Origin: an uncultured Fretibacterium sp.
GTDB taxonomy: Bacteria > Synergistota > Synergistia > Synergistales > Aminobacteriaceae
Assembly: GCA_947168585.1 (NCBI GenBank)
Contig: CAMVMK010000013.1
Span: 1 to 47,384, forward strand
Reading direction: 5' to 3'
DNA length: 47,384 nucleotides
Of this stretch, positions 150 through 47,384 are shown piece by piece. The first letter of the stretch is position 1. Every line of letters begins with the position of its first letter. The position numbers and the translations under genes were made by a program. The notes under the pieces were generated by a model that was given only the letters and a program-made list of their open reading frames with translations, searched no databases and had not been told where the DNA came from.

Positions 150-1583
150 TTAGCTATAACCCCTCACTGCCGTTAAAAAAATTTCTTCAACCGCTGCCCG
201 TTTAGAAATTTTAATATTTATAAATCCGTTTTTTTCAGCTTCGTCAGCAGTCTGACGGCCTATACACACGGCTTGAACTTCACGAAAATTTTTTACACTT
301 TCCGCAAAGCCTTTTACAGTTGAAGCCGATGTAAATATTATCATGTCTAAATCTTTGGGAACGTGAGTTAATTTTACAAAATCAGTTTTATAAATAAAAA
401 TCTCTTCAAAATTTTCTTTATTTTTTATAGCAGAACCGTTTAACGCTCTAAAAATTAAAATTTTTTTTGCGCCCATTGCTAAGGGGGAGAGAGCCGCTTG
501 CGGAGAGGGGGTTAAGATTTTCTCAAGTCCTATTGTTAAATTTTCGAGGTCAAAAATTTCCGGAACAAAATCAACTTTTAATCCGTGATTTTTAAGCGCG
601 TCTGCTGTAGCCCCGCCGATTGCTGCGATTTTAGCATTACCTATTTCGCGAATGTCTCTGTTAGAATTTCTTAATAATTCAAAAAACGCTTCGACTCCTG
701 TAACGCTGGTGAAAGCTATAAATTCGTAGCCTGAAATTTTCTTCTTATCGAGAGAATTTTTTATAACGCTCGTTTTTATAGTCGGCATTAAAATAACTTC
801 CGCACCTGCATCTCTGAGCATTGAAGCTAATTTTTCGCCTCGCCCTGCAGGACGGGTGATTAAAATCCGTTTATTGTTCAGCGGTAAATTTTTCCGCCAG
901 TCTAAATTTAATTTTGCAGCGTTTCCGACAACTATAACGGCAGGAGGATTAATTTTTTTTGCAGATTTTGCGAGATTTTTCAATGAAGTTTTAATTAATT
1001 TCTGACGCGCTGTAGTTCCGTTTGAAATTAAAGCGCAGGGAGTTTCGGGAGAAAATTTTTCGAGTAATTTTTTTTCGAGTTCAGCAGCATTGCCCACGCC
1101 CATTAAAAAAATTTGTGTAGAGTTTTCAAAGTCCGGGATTAAATTATTTTTGTCGTGAGCCGTGAAAATTTCTACGCCGCTTGAATAATCTCGGTGAGTT
1201 GCCGGTATCCCTGCATAGGCCGGTACAGCAAGAGCAGAACTCACGCCCGGGACGACTTCAAATCCCAATCCGGCTTTTATGATAGCTTCAGCTTCTTCAC
1301 CGCCTCGCCCGAATAAAAAAGGATCTCCGCCCTTAAGTCTTACTATATTTTTATAAATTTTTGCTTTTTCGATTATTAAATTTTCAATTTCGCGCTGTGA
1401 AATTTTATGAGAGCCTGCAATTTTTCCCGCGTCAATTTTTTCTGCGCTTTCGGGTATCATTGCTAAAACTCCTCCGCCGACAAGATTATCATAAATTACA
1501 ACGTCAGCTTTCATTAAAATTTCGTGCCCTCTAAGCGTTAAAAGTCCTGAATCGCCCGGCCCTGCACCTATTAAATAAATCAT
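150..1583 (-). CDS. cobA-hemD: Uroporphyrinogen-III C-methyltransferase / uroporphyrinogen-III synthase fusion
   Basis: Bifunctional cytoplasmic enzyme. The N-terminal half (about residues 1-235) is the SAM-dependent uroporphyrinogen-III methylase, with the start IYLIGAGPGD, the loop RLKGGDPFLFGRGGEE and VVPGVSS. The C-terminal half (from about KRILITRPAG) is uroporphyrinogen-III synthase, which cyclises hydroxymethylbilane made by HemC. Together they feed siroheme and corrinoid synthesis. I chose the ATG at 1583 because AAGGAG lies 8 bases upstream; a TTG two codons earlier would sit on top of the ribosome site. It lies 147 bases downstream of hemC on the same strand. Odd points: about 15 residues (TPSPQAALSPLAMGA) between EKIL and KKILIFRAL are encoded by a GC-rich palindromic insert (about 474-515), and the last codons VRGYS come from a heptamer repeat. 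Confidence 0.93.
   Translation of the reverse strand: MIYLIGAGPGDSGLLTLRGHEILMKADVVIYDNLVGGGVLAMIPESAEKIDAGKIAGSHKISQREIENLIIEKAKIYKNIVRLKGGDPFLFGRGGEEAEAIIKAGLGFEVVPGVSSALAVPAYAGIPATHRDYSSGVEIFTAHDKNNLIPDFENSTQIFLMGVGNAAELEKKLLEKFSPETPCALISNGTTARQKLIKTSLKNLAKSAKKINPPAVIVVGNAAKLNLDWRKNLPLNNKRILITRPAGRGEKLASMLRDAGAEVILMPTIKTSVIKNSLDKKKISGYEFIAFTSVTGVEAFFELLRNSNRDIREIGNAKIAAIGGATADALKNHGLKVDFVPEIFDLENLTIGLEKILTPSPQAALSPLAMGAKKILIFRALNGSAIKNKENFEEIFIYKTDFVKLTHVPKDLDMIIFTSASTVKGFAESVKNFREVQAVCIGRQTADEAEKNGFINIKISKRAAVEEIFLTAVRGYS
156..167. repeat. Heptamer array forming the 3' end of cobA-hemD
   Basis: Reads ataacccctcac on the plus strand. On the minus strand it supplies GTGAGGGGTTAT just before the TAA stop, so the protein's C-terminal residues derive from the repeat. 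Confidence 0.5.
474..515. repeat. GC-rich palindromic insert inside hemD domain
   Basis: The segment is centred on the perfect palindrome CCGCTTGCGG (494-503) and flanked by purine-rich AAGGGGGAGAGAG and AGAGGGGG. It is translated on the minus strand as TPSPQAALSPLA, in the middle of a reading frame that otherwise looks like an ordinary HemD. That the segment is an insertion is inferred from how HemD proteins usually read at this point. Confidence 0.55.
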
Positions 1584-1730: not shown

Positions 1731-2606
1731 TTAATTAAAAATTTTTTTCGCAAGCTCTTGGCCGATTGCTTCAGCCTCGTAAATTTTGCCTGATAAAACT
1801 CCGCGGTAAAATTTTTTAGTTTTCTCGTCAATATAAAGCCCTTTAAGAGTCAAAATTCCGTTTGAAATTTCAGCAAAAGCCCCGACCGGAACATTACAGC
1901 CCGCGTTTAATGCTCTTGAAAAAGATCTTTCAGCAAGAGCGCAAAATTTTGAATTTTCATCGTTCACGCAGTCCAAATAAAAATAATTTTCGTCCGCTCG
2001 TCCCTGACACGCTAAAATTGCCTGACCCGGAGCAGGTAAAATTTCGTCAACTTCAAAAATTTTCGAGATTTTTTTTTCAATTCCGAGCCTTTTTAATCCC
2101 GCCGCCGCTAAGACGAGAGCGTCAAATTCTCCCTGTCCGTCTGGCAGGTCAAGTTTTTTTAAGCGCGTATTAATATTGCCTCGAACAGGAATAATTTTTT
2201 TTTCAGGGAAAATTTTTTCAAGCTGTAATCTTCTTCTCAAAGACGACGAGCCGATATTTCTCACCCCTAACCCCTCACCCCTCACTATCAAAGCGTCTCT
2301 CGGGTCATCACGGCGCGAATAAGCTGCGACGGGCAAATTTTTATTAATATTCACGGGCAAATCTTTAAGACTGTGAACGGCAAAATCAATTTCATGATTT
2401 AACAGCGCGTGTTCTAATTCGAGCGTAAACATTCCTTTAATACCCTGAGGGTCAGACGAAAACGGAGCCATATTTTTATCGCCCGATGTTTTAATTTTTA
2501 TTATGGAAATTTCAGCGTCCGGATAAAATCTTAAAATCTCCCGCGCGATTATTTCAGTTTGAGCAAGAGCAAGAGGACTCGCCCGAGTTCCGATTTTAAT
2601 TTTCAA
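1731..2606 (-). CDS. hemC: Hydroxymethylbilane synthase (porphobilinogen deaminase)
   Basis: Polymerises four porphobilinogens into hydroxymethylbilane, the substrate of the HemD half of the neighbouring gene. The sequence shows the N-terminal KIGTRASPLALAQ, HSLKDLP, SSLRRRLQL and the cofactor cysteine in AGCNVPVGAFAE. The start is TTG at 2606, preceded by GGAG; no upstream ATG fits. Two segments look inserted in frame. LPDGQ between KLD and GEFDALVLAAAG is encoded by a short GC-rich palindrome at 2132-2148. GEGLGVR, after DALIVR, is encoded by a four-unit heptamer array at 2261-2285. Both fall in places where the family normally has only short loops, so activity is probably kept. Confidence 0.95.
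   Translation of the reverse strand: MKIKIGTRASPLALAQTEIIAREILRFYPDAEISIIKIKTSGDKNMAPFSSDPQGIKGMFTLELEHALLNHEIDFAVHSLKDLPVNINKNLPVAAYSRRDDPRDALIVRGEGLGVRNIGSSSLRRRLQLEKIFPEKKIIPVRGNINTRLKKLDLPDGQGEFDALVLAAAGLKRLGIEKKISKIFEVDEILPAPGQAILACQGRADENYFYLDCVNDENSKFCALAERSFSRALNAGCNVPVGAFAEISNGILTLKGLYIDEKTKKFYRGVLSGKIYEAEAIGQELAKKIFN
2132..2148. repeat. Palindromic LPDGQ-type insert in hemC
   Basis: The minus-strand sequence is CCTGCCAGACGGACAGG. It shares the core CCTGCC(T/A)GACGGACA with the element at 4795-4815 in jag and gives the same peptide, LPDGQ. Its ends CCTG/CAGG are complementary. Confidence 0.6.
2261..2285. repeat. Heptamer array inside hemC
   Basis: Reads TCACCCCTAACCCCTCACCCC followed by TCAC, three to four heptamers. 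On the minus strand it encodes GEGLGVR within HemC. Confidence 0.7.
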
Positions 2607-2727
2607 TTTTTTACTCCTTCGTTTTTTATAAGTTTGGCTTGAACACTCGCTACTTTAGTCGTGAGATAAAACGCCGTTGTATTTTATTTTATAATTTTAA
2701 CAAAATGAGATGAAAAAATGTATCTGA

Positions 2728-2778
2728 CCGAAATTTTTCGGCGCAAGCCCCTGACTTTAGGCATGGGGAGTATGTCAA
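2728..2778. mobile_element. IS200/IS605-type end motif with two hairpins
   Basis: CCGAAA/TTTCGG (2728-2741) is followed by a CCCC...GGGG hairpin (2748-2768) and AGTATGTCAA. The 24 bases at 2755-2778 match the reverse complement of 47331-47354 with one mismatch. These subterminal hairpins and the TCAA ending are typical of IS200/IS605 ends. I cannot tell whether this is the right end of a lost copy or the hairpin upstream of the tnpB fragment that follows directly. Confidence 0.65.
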
Positions 2779-2965
2779 TATAAAGCAACAGGTAAAGCAG
2801 CTTTCAAAAGAAGATTACCGCAGCATAAAATACTTATCGCATATTGCTAAAAATTTAGCTAATGAGGCAATCTTCAATATAAGGCAATATTACTTCCGCG
2901 AAGGTAAATATTTGAAGCTTAAAATTTTAACAGGTGAAAAACATGAAACAAGAAAAATATTTTAA
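2774..2965 (+). pseudogene. Truncated TnpB (IS605 OrfB) N-terminal fragment
   Basis: The frame reads VNIKQQVKQLSKEDYRSIKY, then LSHIAKNLANEAIFNIRQYY and FREGKYLK. This matches the N-terminus typical of IS605-family TnpB RNA-guided nucleases. After about 45 codons the similarity stops, and an unrelated tail (ILTGEKHETRKIF) runs to a TAA at 2963. There is no ATG, GTG or TTG start in frame just upstream, and the RuvC-like catalytic domain and zinc finger are absent, so it cannot be a working nuclease. It sits directly against an IS200/IS605-type end motif in the roughly 430-base gap between hemC and rpmH, which holds no other gene. Confidence 0.8.
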
Positions 2966-2984
2966 TTCTTAATTATTTCCATTG

Positions 2985-2993
2985 TGTTATAAT
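2985..2993 (+). promoter_or_regulatory. Extended -10 promoter of the rpmH operon
   Basis: TGTTATAAT is a consensus extended -10 element 51 bases before the rpmH start. The -35 match is poor, as is common for extended -10 promoters. The same nonamer precedes the gene at 47300. Confidence 0.6.
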
Positions 2994-3043
2994 TCCACGC
3001 GATATTATTTTTTTTAATTCAGAGAGGAGTATCTTCACTTAAA

Positions 3044-3184
3044 ATGAAAAAGGGAACATTTCAGCCCCATGTATTACCCAGAAAACGCAAGATTGGATTC
3101 TTAGCCCGCAGTGCTTCGGCGTCCGGCCGCAAAGTTCTCAGAAACAGAAGACGCAAGGGACGTAAGTATCTTACCCGTGTCTAA
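3044..3184 (+). CDS. rpmH: 50S ribosomal protein L34
   Basis: A 46-residue basic protein of the large ribosomal subunit, starting [19 protein letters not shown] and ending [12 protein letters not shown]. This is the canonical L34 pattern (lysine/arginine rich, GFLAR, SGR.VL.RRR.KGR). The family's usual length is 44-47. AGGAG lies at 3025-3029, a rather long 14 bases before the ATG. It is the first gene of the conserved rpmH-rnpA-yidD-yidC-jag operon, often found near the replication origin, although no dnaA or DnaA-box cluster is seen here. Its last codons overlap the likely start of rnpA. Confidence 0.95.
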
Positions 3185-3530
3185 TGTAACCGGGCTCAAA
3201 AAAGGCTGGGAATTTGATTTAATATTCCGCACCGGTATTCGTGTCAACGGGGATCTGGTGCGGTTATTATATTTGAAGAAAGAAGACAACACCGAAATAA
3301 AATTCGGCTGTGCTGTCGGGAAAAAATTAGGAAAAGCTCACGTCCGAAATCGAGGCAAAAGAATTTTACGTGCTGCTTTCTCGGCGTTTTCAAAAAAATT
3401 AAATCCCGGTCTTTGCATTGTCCTGATGTTGAAAGAAAAAGGAATTAAAGCTAAAAGTCAGGACATTGCCGCCGAGCTTGAAAAATTATTCAGGCGAAAA
3501 AAATTATTATGCTCTCCCGACTCGCCGTGA
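3177..3530 (+). CDS. rnpA: Ribonuclease P protein component
   Basis: The protein subunit of RNase P, which helps the catalytic RNA trim 5' leaders from precursor tRNAs. The sequence has [40 protein letters not shown] and RAAFS; the basic RNR motif is the RNA-binding signature. The frame is open further upstream inside rpmH, but the GTG at 3177 gives 117 residues, the usual family length, and overlaps the rpmH stop by 8 bases. No clear ribosome site precedes this GTG, so translation may be coupled to rpmH. The 3' end overlaps yidD by 22 bases. Confidence 0.88.
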
Positions 3531-3751
3531 TTTTAATCCGTGCGTATCAGCTTATGATCTCGCCTTATCTTGGCAATAACTGCCGGTTTTGTCCCACTTG
3601 TTCAGAATATGCTATTCAAGTTTATAAAGAATGGGGCTTTTTGCGCGGCTCATGGCTGACACTGAAACGGCTTTCAAAGTGCGGGTGGTGGAATCCCGGA
3701 GGCTATGACCCTCCGCCCGTCTGCCGAGACAGGCAGGCCGAAAAATTTTAA
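3509..3751 (+). CDS. yidD: Membrane protein insertion efficiency factor YidD
   Basis: A small membrane-associated protein (80 residues) that assists YidC-dependent insertion. The signature is clear: IRAYQLMISPYLGNNCRFCP, TCSEYA and GWWNPGGYDP. The start ATG lies inside the end of rnpA. After GGYDP the protein carries PPVCRDRQAEKF. That tail is encoded by a palindromic GC-rich element (3716-3737) and probably replaces the native C-terminus. yidC follows 18 bases after the stop. Confidence 0.92.
   Translation: MLSRLAVILIRAYQLMISPYLGNNCRFCPTCSEYAIQVYKEWGFLRGSWLTLKRLSKCGWWNPGGYDPPPVCRDRQAEKF
3716..3737. repeat. Palindromic insert at yidD 3' end
   Basis: The sequence contains CTGCC-GAGACA-GGCAG and, nested within it, GTCTGCCGAGAC. 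It resembles the GC-rich inserts in hemC and jag, with shared CCTGCC and CAGACGG cores on the opposite strand. It encodes PVCRDRQA at the end of YidD. Confidence 0.55.
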
Positions 3752-3769
3752 GAGGTGAAATTAAAAAAT

Positions 3770-4606
3770 ATGTGGGAACAAGCAAAATCTTTGCTGCGTG
3801 CTCTGCTTGAGCTTATTCATAACTCGATAACGACTATCGGAATAGGCAGCGACTTCGCATGGGGACTTGCGATAATTATCTTGACTCTTTTAGTCCGCGC
3901 GGCCATGCACCCTTTAACTCAAAAACAAATGGTAAGCATGGAAAGAATGCAGAAACTTCAGCCGATGTTAAAAGTTCTGCAGGAAAAATACGCTGACGAT
4001 AAAGACGCTCTTAACCGCGAAACTATGGCTTTATATAAAGAACATAAAGTCAATCCTGCGAGCGGCTGTCTTCCTTTAATAATTCAGCTGCCGATTTTCA
4101 TTCTGCTTTACGGAGTTCTTTATGACTTAACGAAACGCGCTGATTTCACTGACGTTACTTTCTTAGGCGTTAATTTAGGCGGAAGTGTTTTAACGACCGT
4201 TGCTAATGCCTTGAATTTAGTTGACGAAGCAGGCGTTAGAATTCCTGACGAGCAGTTAGGTTTCGTGATGGTATTTTTATCATCGTTTACGAATTTAAGT
4301 CTATTATTCTCGAACATAGGAATGTGGATTTTTAATTTTGTTCTGCTGCTCTTAATAGCGTGGCTCACGTGGTATCAGCAGCATTTGTCTAGCGCAGGGA
4401 ATCCTCAAATGGCTATGATGGCGTGGTTCATGCCTTTATTCCTGACGTTTATCTGCTTCGGACTTCCCGGAGGAGTTTTGCTGTATTGGGGAATTTCATC
4501 GCTTATGGGAATAATTCATCAAATTCGTGTCTCCCGTAGAACGAGCGCGGAAATGAAAGAAAAACCGACTTTATATCAAAATAAGCCCAATTTCAAAAAA
4601 CAATGA
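3770..4606 (+). CDS. yidC: Membrane protein insertase YidC/OxaI
   Basis: Inserts and folds inner-membrane proteins, alone or with the Sec translocon (SecA is encoded at 10.6 kb). It is the short form of 278 residues without a large periplasmic domain. The conserved core starts at GIGSDFAWGLAIIILTLLVR, followed by the cytoplasmic hairpin with KMQKLQP-like MQKLQPMLKVLQEKY and the helices at LPIFILLYGVLYDL, GMWIFNFVLLLLIAWLTW and FMPLFLTFICFGLPGGVLLY. ATG at 3770 was preferred because AGAGGTGA lies 11 bases upstream; a GTG at 3755 is itself part of that ribosome site. jag follows 15 bases later. Confidence 0.94.
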   Translation: MWEQAKSLLRALLELIHNSITTIGIGSDFAWGLAIIILTLLVRAAMHPLTQKQMVSMERMQKLQPMLKVLQEKYADDKDALNRETMALYKEHKVNPASGCLPLIIQLPIFILLYGVLYDLTKRADFTDVTFLGVNLGGSVLTTVANALNLVDEAGVRIPDEQLGFVMVFLSSFTNLSLLFSNIGMWIFNFVLLLLIAWLTWYQQHLSSAGNPQMAMMAWFMPLFLTFICFGLPGGVLLYWGISSLMGIIHQIRVSRRTSAEMKEKPTLYQNKPNFKKQ

Positions 4607-4621
4607 GGTGAAAAATCTAAA

Positions 4622-5479
4622 TTGACTAACGAAAAGAAAATCATAATCGAGGCTTCAAGTGTTGAATCAGCTTTGAATGATGTTTCGGGGCAGTGGCAGA
4701 TCCCTGTCGAGAAACTTCACGCCGAAGTTCTTTCTGAAGAACGAAAAGGTTTTTTAGGGCTCGGCGGAAAAATGCTGAAAGTCGAAATTTCAGCCCTGCC
4801 TGACGGACAAGCAGGAATTCAAGAGAATAAACTTGAAGCTGACGATGACGACGACGAAGAAACTGAAAATCTTGAAGTTAAAAATTCATCAATCCGCGAG
4901 AAATTATTAGCTAAAGGCGCGGAGTTCGTGAATGAAACTTTGAGATTAATGGACTTCGAGGCTAAAGCAGTTGCTTCAGACGCTGCTAAAAATACTCTCG
5001 ATATTCAAGGCCGGGACGCTTCAGATTATGTCGTAGGACGTTACGGCGATGCCCTCAAAGGCATGGAATATTTAGTAAATCTTGCGCTTAGAGACCCTAA
5101 GTCAGAGCCTCGAATTAAAATCGACAGCTGCGGTTACCGCGAACGAAGAACTAAAAGCCTCGAACGTTTAGCAGAAGCTACAGCCCGTCAAGCCGTAAAG
5201 TACGGCCGCCCCGTAAGGCTCGAACCTATGGCAAGCTGGGAACGCTGGGTTATTCACACGACTTTGAAAGACCGCGACGACATTTCGACCGAATCAGTCG
5301 GAGAACCGCCGCTTAGAAAAGTTGTAATTATGCCGAAATTCGACCCTGAAGAACAAGGCACGGCAGGCCCTGCAACTATGAGACTCAGAGCAAGGCGCGA
5401 AAAAATAGGCCAGTCTCCTGAGCGTGAACGCCGTCCAATAGACCGCGACAGACGCAGACGCAGAAGAAGCAGATATTAA
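4622..5479 (+). CDS. jag: Jag/KhpB RNA-binding protein (SpoIIIJ-associated)
   Basis: An RNA-binding protein found next to yidC in many bacteria. Domains in order: Jag_N (about 1-50, IIEASSVESALNDVSGQWQI and KGFLGLGGKMLKV), a charged linker with DDDDDEE, a KH-like region (about 95-165, with NTLDIQGRDASDYVVGRYGD) and an R3H domain (about 170-240, YRERRTKSLERLAEATARQA and MASWERWVIH). The C-terminus is very basic, RDRRRRRRSRY. The TTG start at 4622 has GAGGTGA ten bases upstream. ALPDGQAG, after KVEIS, comes from a palindromic GC-rich element (4795-4815), the same peptide motif as in HemC. Transcription probably ends at the perfect hairpin 5493-5542. Confidence 0.93.
   Translation: MTNEKKIIIEASSVESALNDVSGQWQIPVEKLHAEVLSEERKGFLGLGGKMLKVEISALPDGQAGIQENKLEADDDDDEETENLEVKNSSIREKLLAKGAEFVNETLRLMDFEAKAVASDAAKNTLDIQGRDASDYVVGRYGDALKGMEYLVNLALRDPKSEPRIKIDSCGYRERRTKSLERLAEATARQAVKYGRPVRLEPMASWERWVIHTTLKDRDDISTESVGEPPLRKVVIMPKFDPEEQGTAGPATMRLRARREKIGQSPERERRPIDRDRRRRRRSRY
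4795..4815. repeat. Palindromic LPDGQ-type insert in jag
   Basis: CCTGCCTGACGGACAAGCAGG has complementary ends CCTGC/GCAGG. It shares its core with the hemC element at 2132-2148 and is read in frame as LPDGQAG. Confidence 0.6.
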
Positions 5480-5492
5480 AAAATTAGGAATT

Positions 5493-5542
5493 AGGAGTTA
5501 GAAATGAGGAATTAAAAAAAATTTCTAACTCCTGATTTTTTT
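5493..5542. terminator. Bidirectional terminator built from inverted heptamers
   Basis: AGGAGTTAGAAAT (5493-5505) pairs perfectly over 13 bases with ATTTCTAACTCCT (5521-5533), followed by a run of seven T (5536-5542). It lies between the convergent genes jag and pncC. The arms are heptamer units, and AGGAGTTAG also encodes the last two residues and stop of pncC. Confidence 0.85.
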
Positions 5543-7852: not shown

Positions 7853-7880
7853 TTCCTACTTCCTGCTTCCTAATTCCTAC
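7853..7880. repeat. Heptamer array upstream of rimO
   Basis: Four units, TTCCTAC TTCCTGC TTCCTAA TTCCTAC, a clean tandem array in the gap between the Mrr-like gene and rimO. Confidence 0.8.
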
Positions 7881-7887
7881 TCGCTTT

Positions 7888-13164: not shown

Positions 13165-13169
13165 TTCAA

Positions 13170-13199
13170 GTAGGAAGTAGGAATTAGGAGGTAGGAAGT
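13170..13199. repeat. Heptamer array providing the ribosome site of the next gene
   Basis: Four units (GTAGGAA GTAGGAA TTAGGAG GTAGGAA). The last AGGAAG (13193-13198) lies 9 bases before the ATG at 13208, at the proper Shine-Dalgarno distance. Confidence 0.75.
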
Positions 13200-13207
13200 A
13201 AAAAATT

Positions 13208-27125: not shown

Positions 27126-27151
27126 CAGTTAGGAGTTAGGAGTGAGGAGTG
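27126..27151. repeat. Heptamer array, 3-4 units
   Basis: Reads GTTAGGAGTTAGGAGTGAGG followed by AGTGAG, in the gap between convergent genes. Its last unit forms the left arm of the hairpin at 27144-27171. Confidence 0.75.
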
Positions 27152-27171
27152 AGAAAAGTTTACCGCTCCTC
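27144..27171. terminator. Hairpin between convergent genes
   Basis: GAGGAGTG (27144-27151) pairs with CGCTCCTC (27164-27171), with one G-T wobble. It is a plausible shared terminator for the TamB-like gene and the minus-strand oxidoreductase, although the T tail is interrupted. Confidence 0.5.
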
Positions 27172-40845: not shown

Positions 40846-40863
40846 GCACCTGCCTAAAAGGCA

Positions 40864-40920
40864 ATTAGGGATGAGGGATTAGGAATTAGGAATTAAAAAG
40901 ATTTCTCACCCCTAACTTTT
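40864..40920 (+). terminator. Inverted heptamer arrays upstream of aspS
   Basis: ATTAGGGATGAGGGAT (40864-40879) faces ATTTCTCACCCCTAAC (40901-40916), with two mismatches and two G-T pairs, then TTTT. Extra heptamers (TTAGGAA twice) fill the loop. It probably ends the accessory cluster. Confidence 0.6.
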
Positions 40921-42809: not shown

Positions 42810-42865
42810 GTGAGGGGTTAGGGGTTAGGGGTGAGGGATTTTTAATCCCTAACTCTTAACTTTTT
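42810..42865 (+). terminator. Heptamer-built terminator after aspS
   Basis: GTTAGGGGTGAGGGATT (42824-42840) pairs with AATCCCTAACTCTTAAC (42844-42860) across a TTT loop: 16 of 17 positions, two as G-T. Five T follow (42861-42865). Further heptamers extend left to 42810. This is the clearest example of a terminator formed from the repeat. Confidence 0.85.
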
Positions 42866-46408: not shown

Positions 46409-46432
46409 AGCAAGGCAGCATTAGAAAGAAAA

Positions 46433-46459
46433 CTCTAACCCCTAACTCCTAACTCCTAC
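46433..46459. repeat. Heptamer array between convergent genes
   Basis: Four units, CTCTAACC CCTAACT CCTAACT CCTACT, abutting the cupin stop codon. A small TTAGA/TCTAA stem (46421-46438) precedes it. It may serve as the terminator for the minus-strand pair. Confidence 0.7.
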
Positions 46460-47299: not shown

Positions 47300-47329
47300 A
47301 TGAATATAATTTTACTTTCCGGCGGTTCT
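47300..47329 (+). pseudogene. Interrupted 5' end of a mannose-1-phosphate guanylyltransferase-like gene
   Basis: The ten codons MNIILLSGGS are the start of the nucleotide-binding motif of sugar-phosphate nucleotidyltransferases (normally MNIILLSGGSGxRLWPLS in the mannose-1-phosphate guanylyltransferase group). At the next codon the sequence switches to an IS200/IS605-type end, and the frame closes with TAG at 47366. The remainder of the gene should lie beyond the element, outside the window. Identification rests on ten residues only. Confidence 0.55.
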
Positions 47330-47330
47330 G

Positions 47331-47384
47331 TTGACATACTCCCCACGCCTAAAGGCGGGGGATTCTAGTATCAACAACAAATGC
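47331..47384. mobile_element. End of an IS200/IS605-family element, runs off the window
   Basis: TTGACATACTCCCC leads into the hairpin CCCCACGCC-TAAA-GGCGGGG, then GATTCTAG. The first 24 bases match the reverse complement of 2755-2778 with one mismatch. Conserved hairpin ends ending in TCAA (here TTGA on this strand) are typical of this family. The body with tnpA or tnpB is not in the window. Confidence 0.75.

What the first reader, a model, noticed from the sequence alone, without database searches (positions are those of the whole stretch)
2132..4815. Short GC-rich palindromes inserted in frame in housekeeping genes
hemC (2132-2148) and jag (4795-4815) carry the related cores CCTGCCAGACGGACAGG and CCTGCCTGACGGACAAGCAGG, both read as LPDGQ. 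yidD (3716-3737) ends in a similar palindrome read as PVCRDRQA, and the hemD domain (474-515) carries a different one. In each case the surrounding protein matches its family while the extra peptide does not. This resembles Rickettsia palindromic elements, which add in-frame peptides to essential proteins. I know of no such description for this lineage.
Basis: partly seen in the sequence, partly recalled or inferred. Interest (0 to 1): 0.8.

Follow-up and report, generated by a model that had tools for sequence, protein, structure and literature searches.

The report
Tiny mobile DNA hairpins inside genes
Short hairpin-forming DNA pieces of about 20 letters are scattered through this bacterium, many of them sitting in frame inside housekeeping genes, and the same 20 letters recur in many unrelated bacteria, which makes them candidates for one of the smallest mobile DNA elements known.

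Summary
hemC, yidD and jag carry degenerate copies of a dispersed 20-21-nt hairpin, consensus CCTGTCTG-CCGA-CAGGCAGG. The genome has 28 places matching the 20-mer at up to 3 mismatches, against 0 for the reversed control. Loci held contain 48 distinct sites, plus hemC and yidD: 32 in open frames of at least 100 codons, 26 with a family match, 15 of them inside the matched stretch (MraY, MurC, RsmH, MnmE, IspDF, DnaX and others). 14 of 16 non-genic copies adjoin heptad repeats. The hemD item is a different, single-copy sequence.

The 20-mer is not lineage-specific. 35 genomes chosen from these hold 708 copies against 0 controls. In ten records, filled and empty sites differ by exactly 20 bp without target duplication; insertions prefer V^C. 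RPE, tagged-REP and GIY-YIG memberships were not supported. Best reading: a very small non-autonomous mobile hairpin moved by an unknown factor; genic copies survive when in frame. Nearest known: intragenic REPs and Nostoc SDRs (latter recalled).

The parts
2132..2148 (-). palindromic element copy (degenerate, 17 nt) in hemC, read LPDGQ
   Evidence: absent from 29 of 29 aligned relatives; codon alignment
1731..2606 (-). hemC, hydroxymethylbilane synthase, host gene
   Evidence: TIGR00212 5.1e-81 over residues 3-289
3716..3737 (+). palindromic element copy (22 nt) forming the C-terminal tail of YidD, read PVCRDRQA
   Evidence: Pfam YidD domain ends at residue 68 of 80
3509..3751 (+). yidD, host gene
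   Evidence: TIGR00278 2.9e-22
4795..4815 (+). palindromic element copy (21 nt) in jag, read LPDGQAG
   Evidence: absent in 12 of 12 aligned relatives, in a variable linker
4622..5479 (+). jag (RNA-binding cell elongation regulator Jag/EloR), host gene
   Evidence: NF041568 3.1e-43
474..515 (-). different GC-rich insert in the hemD domain, single copy; not a member of the family
   Evidence: 1 hit, itself; relatives carry length-variable or heptad-type sequence here
2260..2286 (-). heptad repeat (GTGAGGG/GTTAGGG type) read in frame in hemC as RGEGLGVRN; the same repeat type adjoins most non-genic palindromes of this genome

Best explanation
hemC, yidD and jag carry diverged copies of a very small dispersed palindromic element. 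Its intact form is a 20-nt hairpin, CCTGTCTG-CCGA-CAGGCAGG. Shown: the family exists in this genome and in many other genomes; copies are present or absent as an exact 20-bp unit at otherwise matching sites in ten records, without target-site duplication; sites are biased to V^C; the unit reads without a stop in all six frames, so an insertion of suitable length lengthens a protein by about seven residues instead of breaking it. Inferred: it moves by copying into new sites with machinery supplied in trans (not identified, probably enzymatic, acting on one folded strand or on its RNA). Insertions in genes would be kept only where the frame and the protein tolerate them. Copies in heptad repeats, tRNA-like sequences, REP-type repeats and older copies of itself are insertions into tolerant sites.
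For: Own genome: 28 hits against 0 and 55 against 3. 48 distinct sites in the loci held, 32 in open frames of at least 100 codons; 26 of these with a family match, 15 inside the matched stretch. Peptide absent from 29 of 29 HemC relatives aligned, 7 of 7 aligned for IspD out of 11 fetched and 12 of 12 for Jag. A 7-residue gap opposite the peptide in RsmH and MnmE against PDB homologues. Exact empty sites: best cases L226 99% over 79 nt, L274 100% over 80, L265 98% over 58, L236 100% over 55. Target bias: +1 is C in 87 of 150 against 20.5% background; -1 is T in 11 of 150 against 29%. Genic copies are 21 nt in 17 of 32, non-genic in 3 of 16. Strand hits vary in the genus (hits/control): G000 55/3, G007 30/3, G020 17/4, G025 0/0.
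Against: No mobiliser found; GIY-YIG and Y1 families do not track copy number in the genus. The window's own copies are degenerate. hemC shows a net gain of 12 nt, not 20-21, and IspD 15-24 nt depending on the relative. RdgB and MraY give no clean gap opposite the peptide. Several genic copies lie outside the matched part of the protein or near a frame end and may not be translated or may not touch the fold (UppS, RpoD, TilS, HrcA, FeoB linker, an unmatched part of the RpoC frame; with 67-69). The closest relative by HemC, G008, has no 20-mer hit. Empty sites were found for 28 of 278 instances, some in repeats where alignment is ambiguous. Direction (gain against loss) is inferred. The non-Bacteroidota titles shown look to be MAG or uncultured records.
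Confidence: 0.72

Rival explanations
1. REP-type element (tagged GTAG/CGTC palindrome) mobilised by a RAYT/Y1 transposase.
For: Similar size, palindromic, intergenic and sometimes intragenic with in-frame peptides in other species (PMC3733652). The window's genome does have one Y1 match, a fragment (E 1.9e-20, profile 43-109 of 121) at the very end of contig 14.
Against: The flanks of 150 independent copies show no conserved tetranucleotide. Y1 family PF01797 is found in 15 of 41 genus genomes but not in G020 (100% complete), G007 (75% complete) or G022; G009 with four Y1 hits has 2 palindrome strand hits. G022 is rich only by the 21-nt pattern (19/5) and has no 20-mer hit.
Confidence: 0.1
2. 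RNA-mediated spread: the transcript folds into the hairpin (8-bp stem on the CCTGTCTG strand) and is reverse-transcribed or spliced into new sites, as I recall was suggested for Nostoc SDR elements.
For: One strand folds better (-11.2 against -9.0 kcal/mol). The T.G wobble pair at positions 5/16 is common and T-A is rare (183 T-G, 95 C-G, 3 T-A of 299; the genome scan pattern itself required T-G, and T-A needs two steps from C-G). Copies sit in loops of tRNA-like sequences.
Against: Genic copies do not favour the better-folding strand as sense: 11 of 32 have it, 21 the other (the label is uncertain for degenerate copies). No reverse transcriptase was sought.
Confidence: 0.25
3. Small GIY-YIG endonucleases carry the hairpin (homing-like).
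For: In several Flavobacteriaceae-type records the hairpin sits in a 5' tRNA half directly upstream of a small GIY-YIG-like ORF. GIY-YIG-like hits were found in 11 of the loci compared, 9 of them within about 300 nt of a palindrome.
Against: In the window's genome PF01541 finds one hit in a 488-codon frame and two weak hits, and counts do not track palindromes in the genus.
Confidence: 0.07
4. Site-by-site origin by template switching or filler capture at breaks, with no mobile unit.
For: The net gain of 12 nt in hemC and the variable loops are compatible with it.
Against: The same 20-mer recurs in unrelated genomes, and the empty sites found show no gap at the junction.
Confidence: 0.06
5. 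Assembly or library artefact.
For: Many records are MAGs.
Against: Present in named isolate genomes (Galbibacter orientalis, Gelidibacter japonicus, Maribacter arenosus, Flavobacterium undicola), and in frame inside conserved genes.
Confidence: 0.02

Closest known systems
Intragenic REPs (GTAG/CGTC families, including RPE-4 and RPE-6 of Rickettsia conorii)
   Same: Short palindromes, dispersed, partly inside ORFs where they add peptides; reported from 8 phyla (PMC3733652: abstract, passages and its section on genome distribution read)
   Different: Different sequence (the strings CCTG, CTGCC and CAGGC do not occur in its main text; figures and supplements not seen), no tag, 20 nt, near-identical across phyla, no RAYT link seen in this genus
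Small dispersed repeats (SDR) of Nostoc, Elhai et al. 2008, Genome Research (recalled; not held; PMC2884548 and PMC3116915 passages only mention SDRs)
   Same: As I recall: 21-27 nt, hairpin, embedded in heptameric repeats, nested in themselves, judged mobile
   Different: As I recall: restricted to a group of cyanobacteria. Sequence not compared, so identity with one SDR family cannot be excluded
Rickettsia palindromic elements (RPE-1 type)
   Same: In-frame peptides in housekeeping proteins
   Different: Longer (about 100-150 bp, recalled; described as longer), genus-level distribution (recalled), other sequence
GC clusters and repetitive hairpin elements of mitochondria (PMC2800124, passages read)
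   Same: Mobile hairpins; GC-rich clusters in yeast; lack of flanking duplications is noted for Allomyces
   Different: Organellar, and unrelated in sequence as far as I know (not compared)

Membership tests
Rickettsia palindromic element | Unit of about 100-150 bp (recalled) encoding tens of residues | tested here: not met
   Unit is 20-21 nt; exact empty sites
Rickettsia palindromic element | In-frame insertion in housekeeping genes | tested here: met
Tagged REP | GTAG or CGTC tag next to the hairpin | tested here: not met
   Flank composition of 150 copies
Tagged REP / REPIN | Associated RAYT (Y1) gene (GTAG REPs) | tested here: not met
   none in G020, G007, G022; one fragment in the window's own genome at a contig end
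Nostoc SDR | 20-30-nt hairpin | tested here: met
Nostoc SDR | Embedded in heptameric repeats (recalled) | tested here: met
   Own genome: 14 of 16 non-genic copies have a heptad motif within 30 nt against 21% of non-genic window positions. Not so elsewhere, 1 of 150 by a different measure
Nostoc SDR | Nested in copies of itself (recalled) | tested here: inconclusive
   7 of 277 against 3 of 554 control junctions
Nostoc SDR | Sequence identity with one of the SDR families | not testable with these tools
   Paper not held

The most novel reading that the evidence does not exclude
A single 20-bp hairpin is an actively spreading, cross-phylum mobile element with its own trans-acting machinery. It is carried at times by phages, inserts exactly and without target duplication at V^C, including into tRNA loops, and is a continuing source of 7-residue in-frame insertions in essential proteins.
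Probability: 0.45. Interest if true: 0.9.

Novelty: new variant of a known kind. Interest (0 to 1): 0.76.

Why it matters
If mobile, this is among the smallest transposing units known and recurs nearly letter for letter in many phyla, so a shared and unknown insertion machinery must exist and can be looked for. It also gives a natural set of in-frame, roughly 7-residue additions in essential-type proteins (DnaX, MraY, MurC, RsmH, MnmE, HemC) to test how proteins accept new sequence. Gene callers, profile builders and structure predictors meet these peptides without knowing their origin.

Tried and rejected
GIY-YIG mobiliser: adjacent in Flavobacteriaceae-type tRNA-like copies, but no relation in the genus. 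RAYT: no relation in the genus, though the own genome has one Y1 fragment; I raised that rival from 0.08 to 0.10 on rechecking. Preference for hairpin loops as targets: not supported overall, since the junction is enclosed by at least 4 pairs in 0.627 of 276 joined targets against 0.629 of 552 control flanks. Heptad association outside this genus: not seen (1 of 150). Carriage by cultured phages or plasmids: no match in phages; in plasmids 6 partial matches, the best 20 nt at 95% (sensitivity for so short a query is uncertain). hemD palindrome: single copy. tRNA reading of the L212/L221/L236-type copies: with the unit taken out, ARAGORN called a tRNA across the junction only for L345, a tRNA-Met with the unit in its variable region; 1 of 277. 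The first BLAST script for empty sites failed on a gap option and was rerun. Order-level relatives have high control counts; I drew nothing from them. The two control palindromes keep base make-up but not dinucleotides.

Literature: searches. No held paper contains the 20-mer or the peptides LSADRQ, CLSADR, PACRQTG, LPVGRQ, PVCRQAG, LPAGRQ. This covers only open-licence PMC papers. PMC4692102 was seen in a search listing only; PMC2694212 in passages.
Full report
What was checked. The window is contig 13 of an unnamed 2.35-Mb assembly, 93.87% complete. The three palindromes in hemC, yidD and jag are present as described. On their own they are imperfect: a scan for perfect GC-rich arms of at least 6 bp in the window did not list them, and the exact hemC/jag core occurs only twice in the genome. 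The case rests on the genome.

A dispersed family. With CCTGCCTGNCNGNCAGRCRGG at up to 3 mismatches the genome gives 55 strand hits against 3 for the reversed pattern. With CCYGYCN{5,13}GRCRGG it gives 40+40 against 9+9. Four exact copies of one 20-mer, CCTGTCTGCCGACAGGCAGG, appear among these. That 20-mer at up to 3 mismatches gives 28 hits against 0. In the loci held, 48 distinct sites pass the 20- or 21-nt definitions; hemC (17 nt) and yidD (22 nt) fall outside those and make 50.

Where the copies sit. 32 of 48 lie in a stop-free frame of at least 100 codons, against 92.9% of window bases in such frames, so genic copies are under-represented. A family matches the frame in 26 of 32 cases, some below the curated cut-off; 5 gave no family and 1 (L049) was not tested. 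Set against the residue positions, 15 of the 26 lie inside the matched stretch: ABC-F, RdgB, GalT, IspDF, the IMP cyclohydrolase domain, CobU, a metal P-type ATPase, DnaX, YedF (two copies in one gene), MraY, MurC, Jag, RsmH and MnmE. Others lie outside it: RpoD (residues 21-28, matched from 126), UppS (10-17, matched from 41), HrcA and TilS at the C-terminal end, FeoB between the FeoA-like and FeoB parts, RpoC at 500-507 between matched parts. Some of these may not be translated. Genic copies are 21 nt in 17 of 32 cases and non-genic ones in 3 of 16, as expected if frame matters. Of the 16 non-genic copies 14 have a heptad-repeat motif within 30 nt on at least one side and 8 on both, against 21% and 3.6% of non-genic window positions.

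Are they insertions? HemC: 29 of 29 aligned relatives lack LPDGQ. IspDF: 7 of 7 relatives aligned, of 11 fetched, lack the peptide, with length differences of 15 to 24 nt. Jag: 12 of 12 lack it, in a variable linker. RsmH and MnmE: 7 residues unmatched in the PDB homologues 1m6y and 1xzp. Against a simple picture, HemC gained 12 nt net, and RdgB and MraY show no clean gap. One copy, in a frame that looks to me like the C-terminus of HisH (not tested), is shared by G007 and G020 at the same place, so copies are also inherited. In the genus, strand hits vary from 0 to the 55 of this genome. The 20-mer itself was counted in five genomes only: G000 28, G007 7, G020 3, G008 0, G022 0.

Beyond the lineage. 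Titles name Bacteroidota, Omnitrophota, Patescibacteria groups, Neomarinimicrobiota, Nitrospirae, Planctomycetota, Verrucomicrobia, Bacillota, Actinomycetota, Proteobacteria and Deltaproteobacteria. By my arithmetic about one chance match is expected in 257 billion bases of even composition. From 35 genomes that I chose among these, all 35 had copies at up to 1 mismatch of CCTGYCTGYCGRCAGRCAGG, 708 in sum (1 to 225 each), against 0 control matches in all 35; they were selected for having at least one. Viral contigs gave 59 stretches for the degenerate form and 0 for each of two rearranged palindromes. Some of these contigs carry phage genes; in L312 the unit lies between a major tail protein and a tail assembly chaperone gene. 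Cultured phages gave no match, and plasmids no full exact match.

How it inserts. Of 278 distinct instances held, 28 matched a sequence in the held loci that lacks the unit. In ten records (L216, L226, L236, L265, L274, L281, L300, L301, L340, L395) the match is at least 90% over at least 35 nt, with the 20-bp unit missing, no gap within 10 nt of the junction and no target duplication. Several of these sites are other repeats or tRNA-like sequences. In 150 independent oriented copies the base after the unit is C in 87 (background 20.5%), and the base before it is rarely T (11 of 150, background 29%). In tRNA-Leu and tRNA-Arg 5' halves the unit sits, by my reading of the tRNA fold, between D-loop and 3' strand of the D-stem. 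One tRNA-Met is still called as a tRNA with the unit in its variable region. Nesting of copies within copies is seen in 7 of 277 (control 3 of 554).

What it is. The unit reads through in all six frames (PVCRQAG, LSADRQ, CLPTGR, PACRQT, LPVGRQ, CLSADR; seen), so it can be tolerated in genes. It is best described as a non-autonomous, REP/SDR-like mobile hairpin, unusually small and unusually widespread. The mobiliser is unknown: Y1 transposases and GIY-YIG nucleases do not track it in the genus, though the own genome holds one Y1 fragment at a contig end, and small GIY-YIG-like ORFs lie next to some copies in other genomes. In-frame REPs are known in other bacteria (PMC3733652), so in-frame decoration is not new in kind. 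What I found in no held paper is this sequence (open-licence PMC only); its size and its recurrence across phyla go with it. The heptad and nesting parallels with Nostoc SDR elements rest on my memory of a paper that is not held.

Noticed in passing
window 2260-2286 (hemC, minus strand): A GTGAGGG/GTTAGGG heptad repeat is read in frame in HemC (RGEGLGVRN). G007 and G020 have other heptad-type inserts at the same place.
   Followed up: partly
window 5482-5514, 7853-7881, 13168-13200, 27127-27153, 40863-40895, 42813-42837, 46431-46458: Dispersed 7-nt tandem repeats (TTAGGAG/GTGAGGG type) across the window, the usual neighbour of non-genic palindromes elsewhere in the genome.
   Followed up: partly
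L212, L221, L236, L241, L260, L282: 5' halves of tRNA-Leu or tRNA-Arg carrying the palindrome, followed by small GIY-YIG-like ORFs; ARAGORN finds a tRNA in the same locus in L212, L221, L236, L241 and L260, none in L282.
   Followed up: partly
G000:C29:14242, C54:10633, C43:9154 (loci L168-L170): A second palindrome type, CCTGTCTCGCGGCATGAGACAGG (C29, C54) and a relative (C43).
   Followed up: no
L033, L035, L042: Three identical copies of CCTGCCAGCCTGACAGGCGGG, each with heptad motifs on both sides; the one in L035 lies in a P-type ATPase frame.
   Followed up: no
L274, L300, L301, L216: Other repeats (for example CGTCATTGCGA and GTCATCCTGAACTTGTTTCAGGATC) serve as insertion sites of the 20-mer.
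   Followed up: no
window 2745-2783 and 47326-47364: Inverted 39-nt match (85%) that looks like ends of an IS200/IS605-type element (label recalled, not tested).
   Followed up: no
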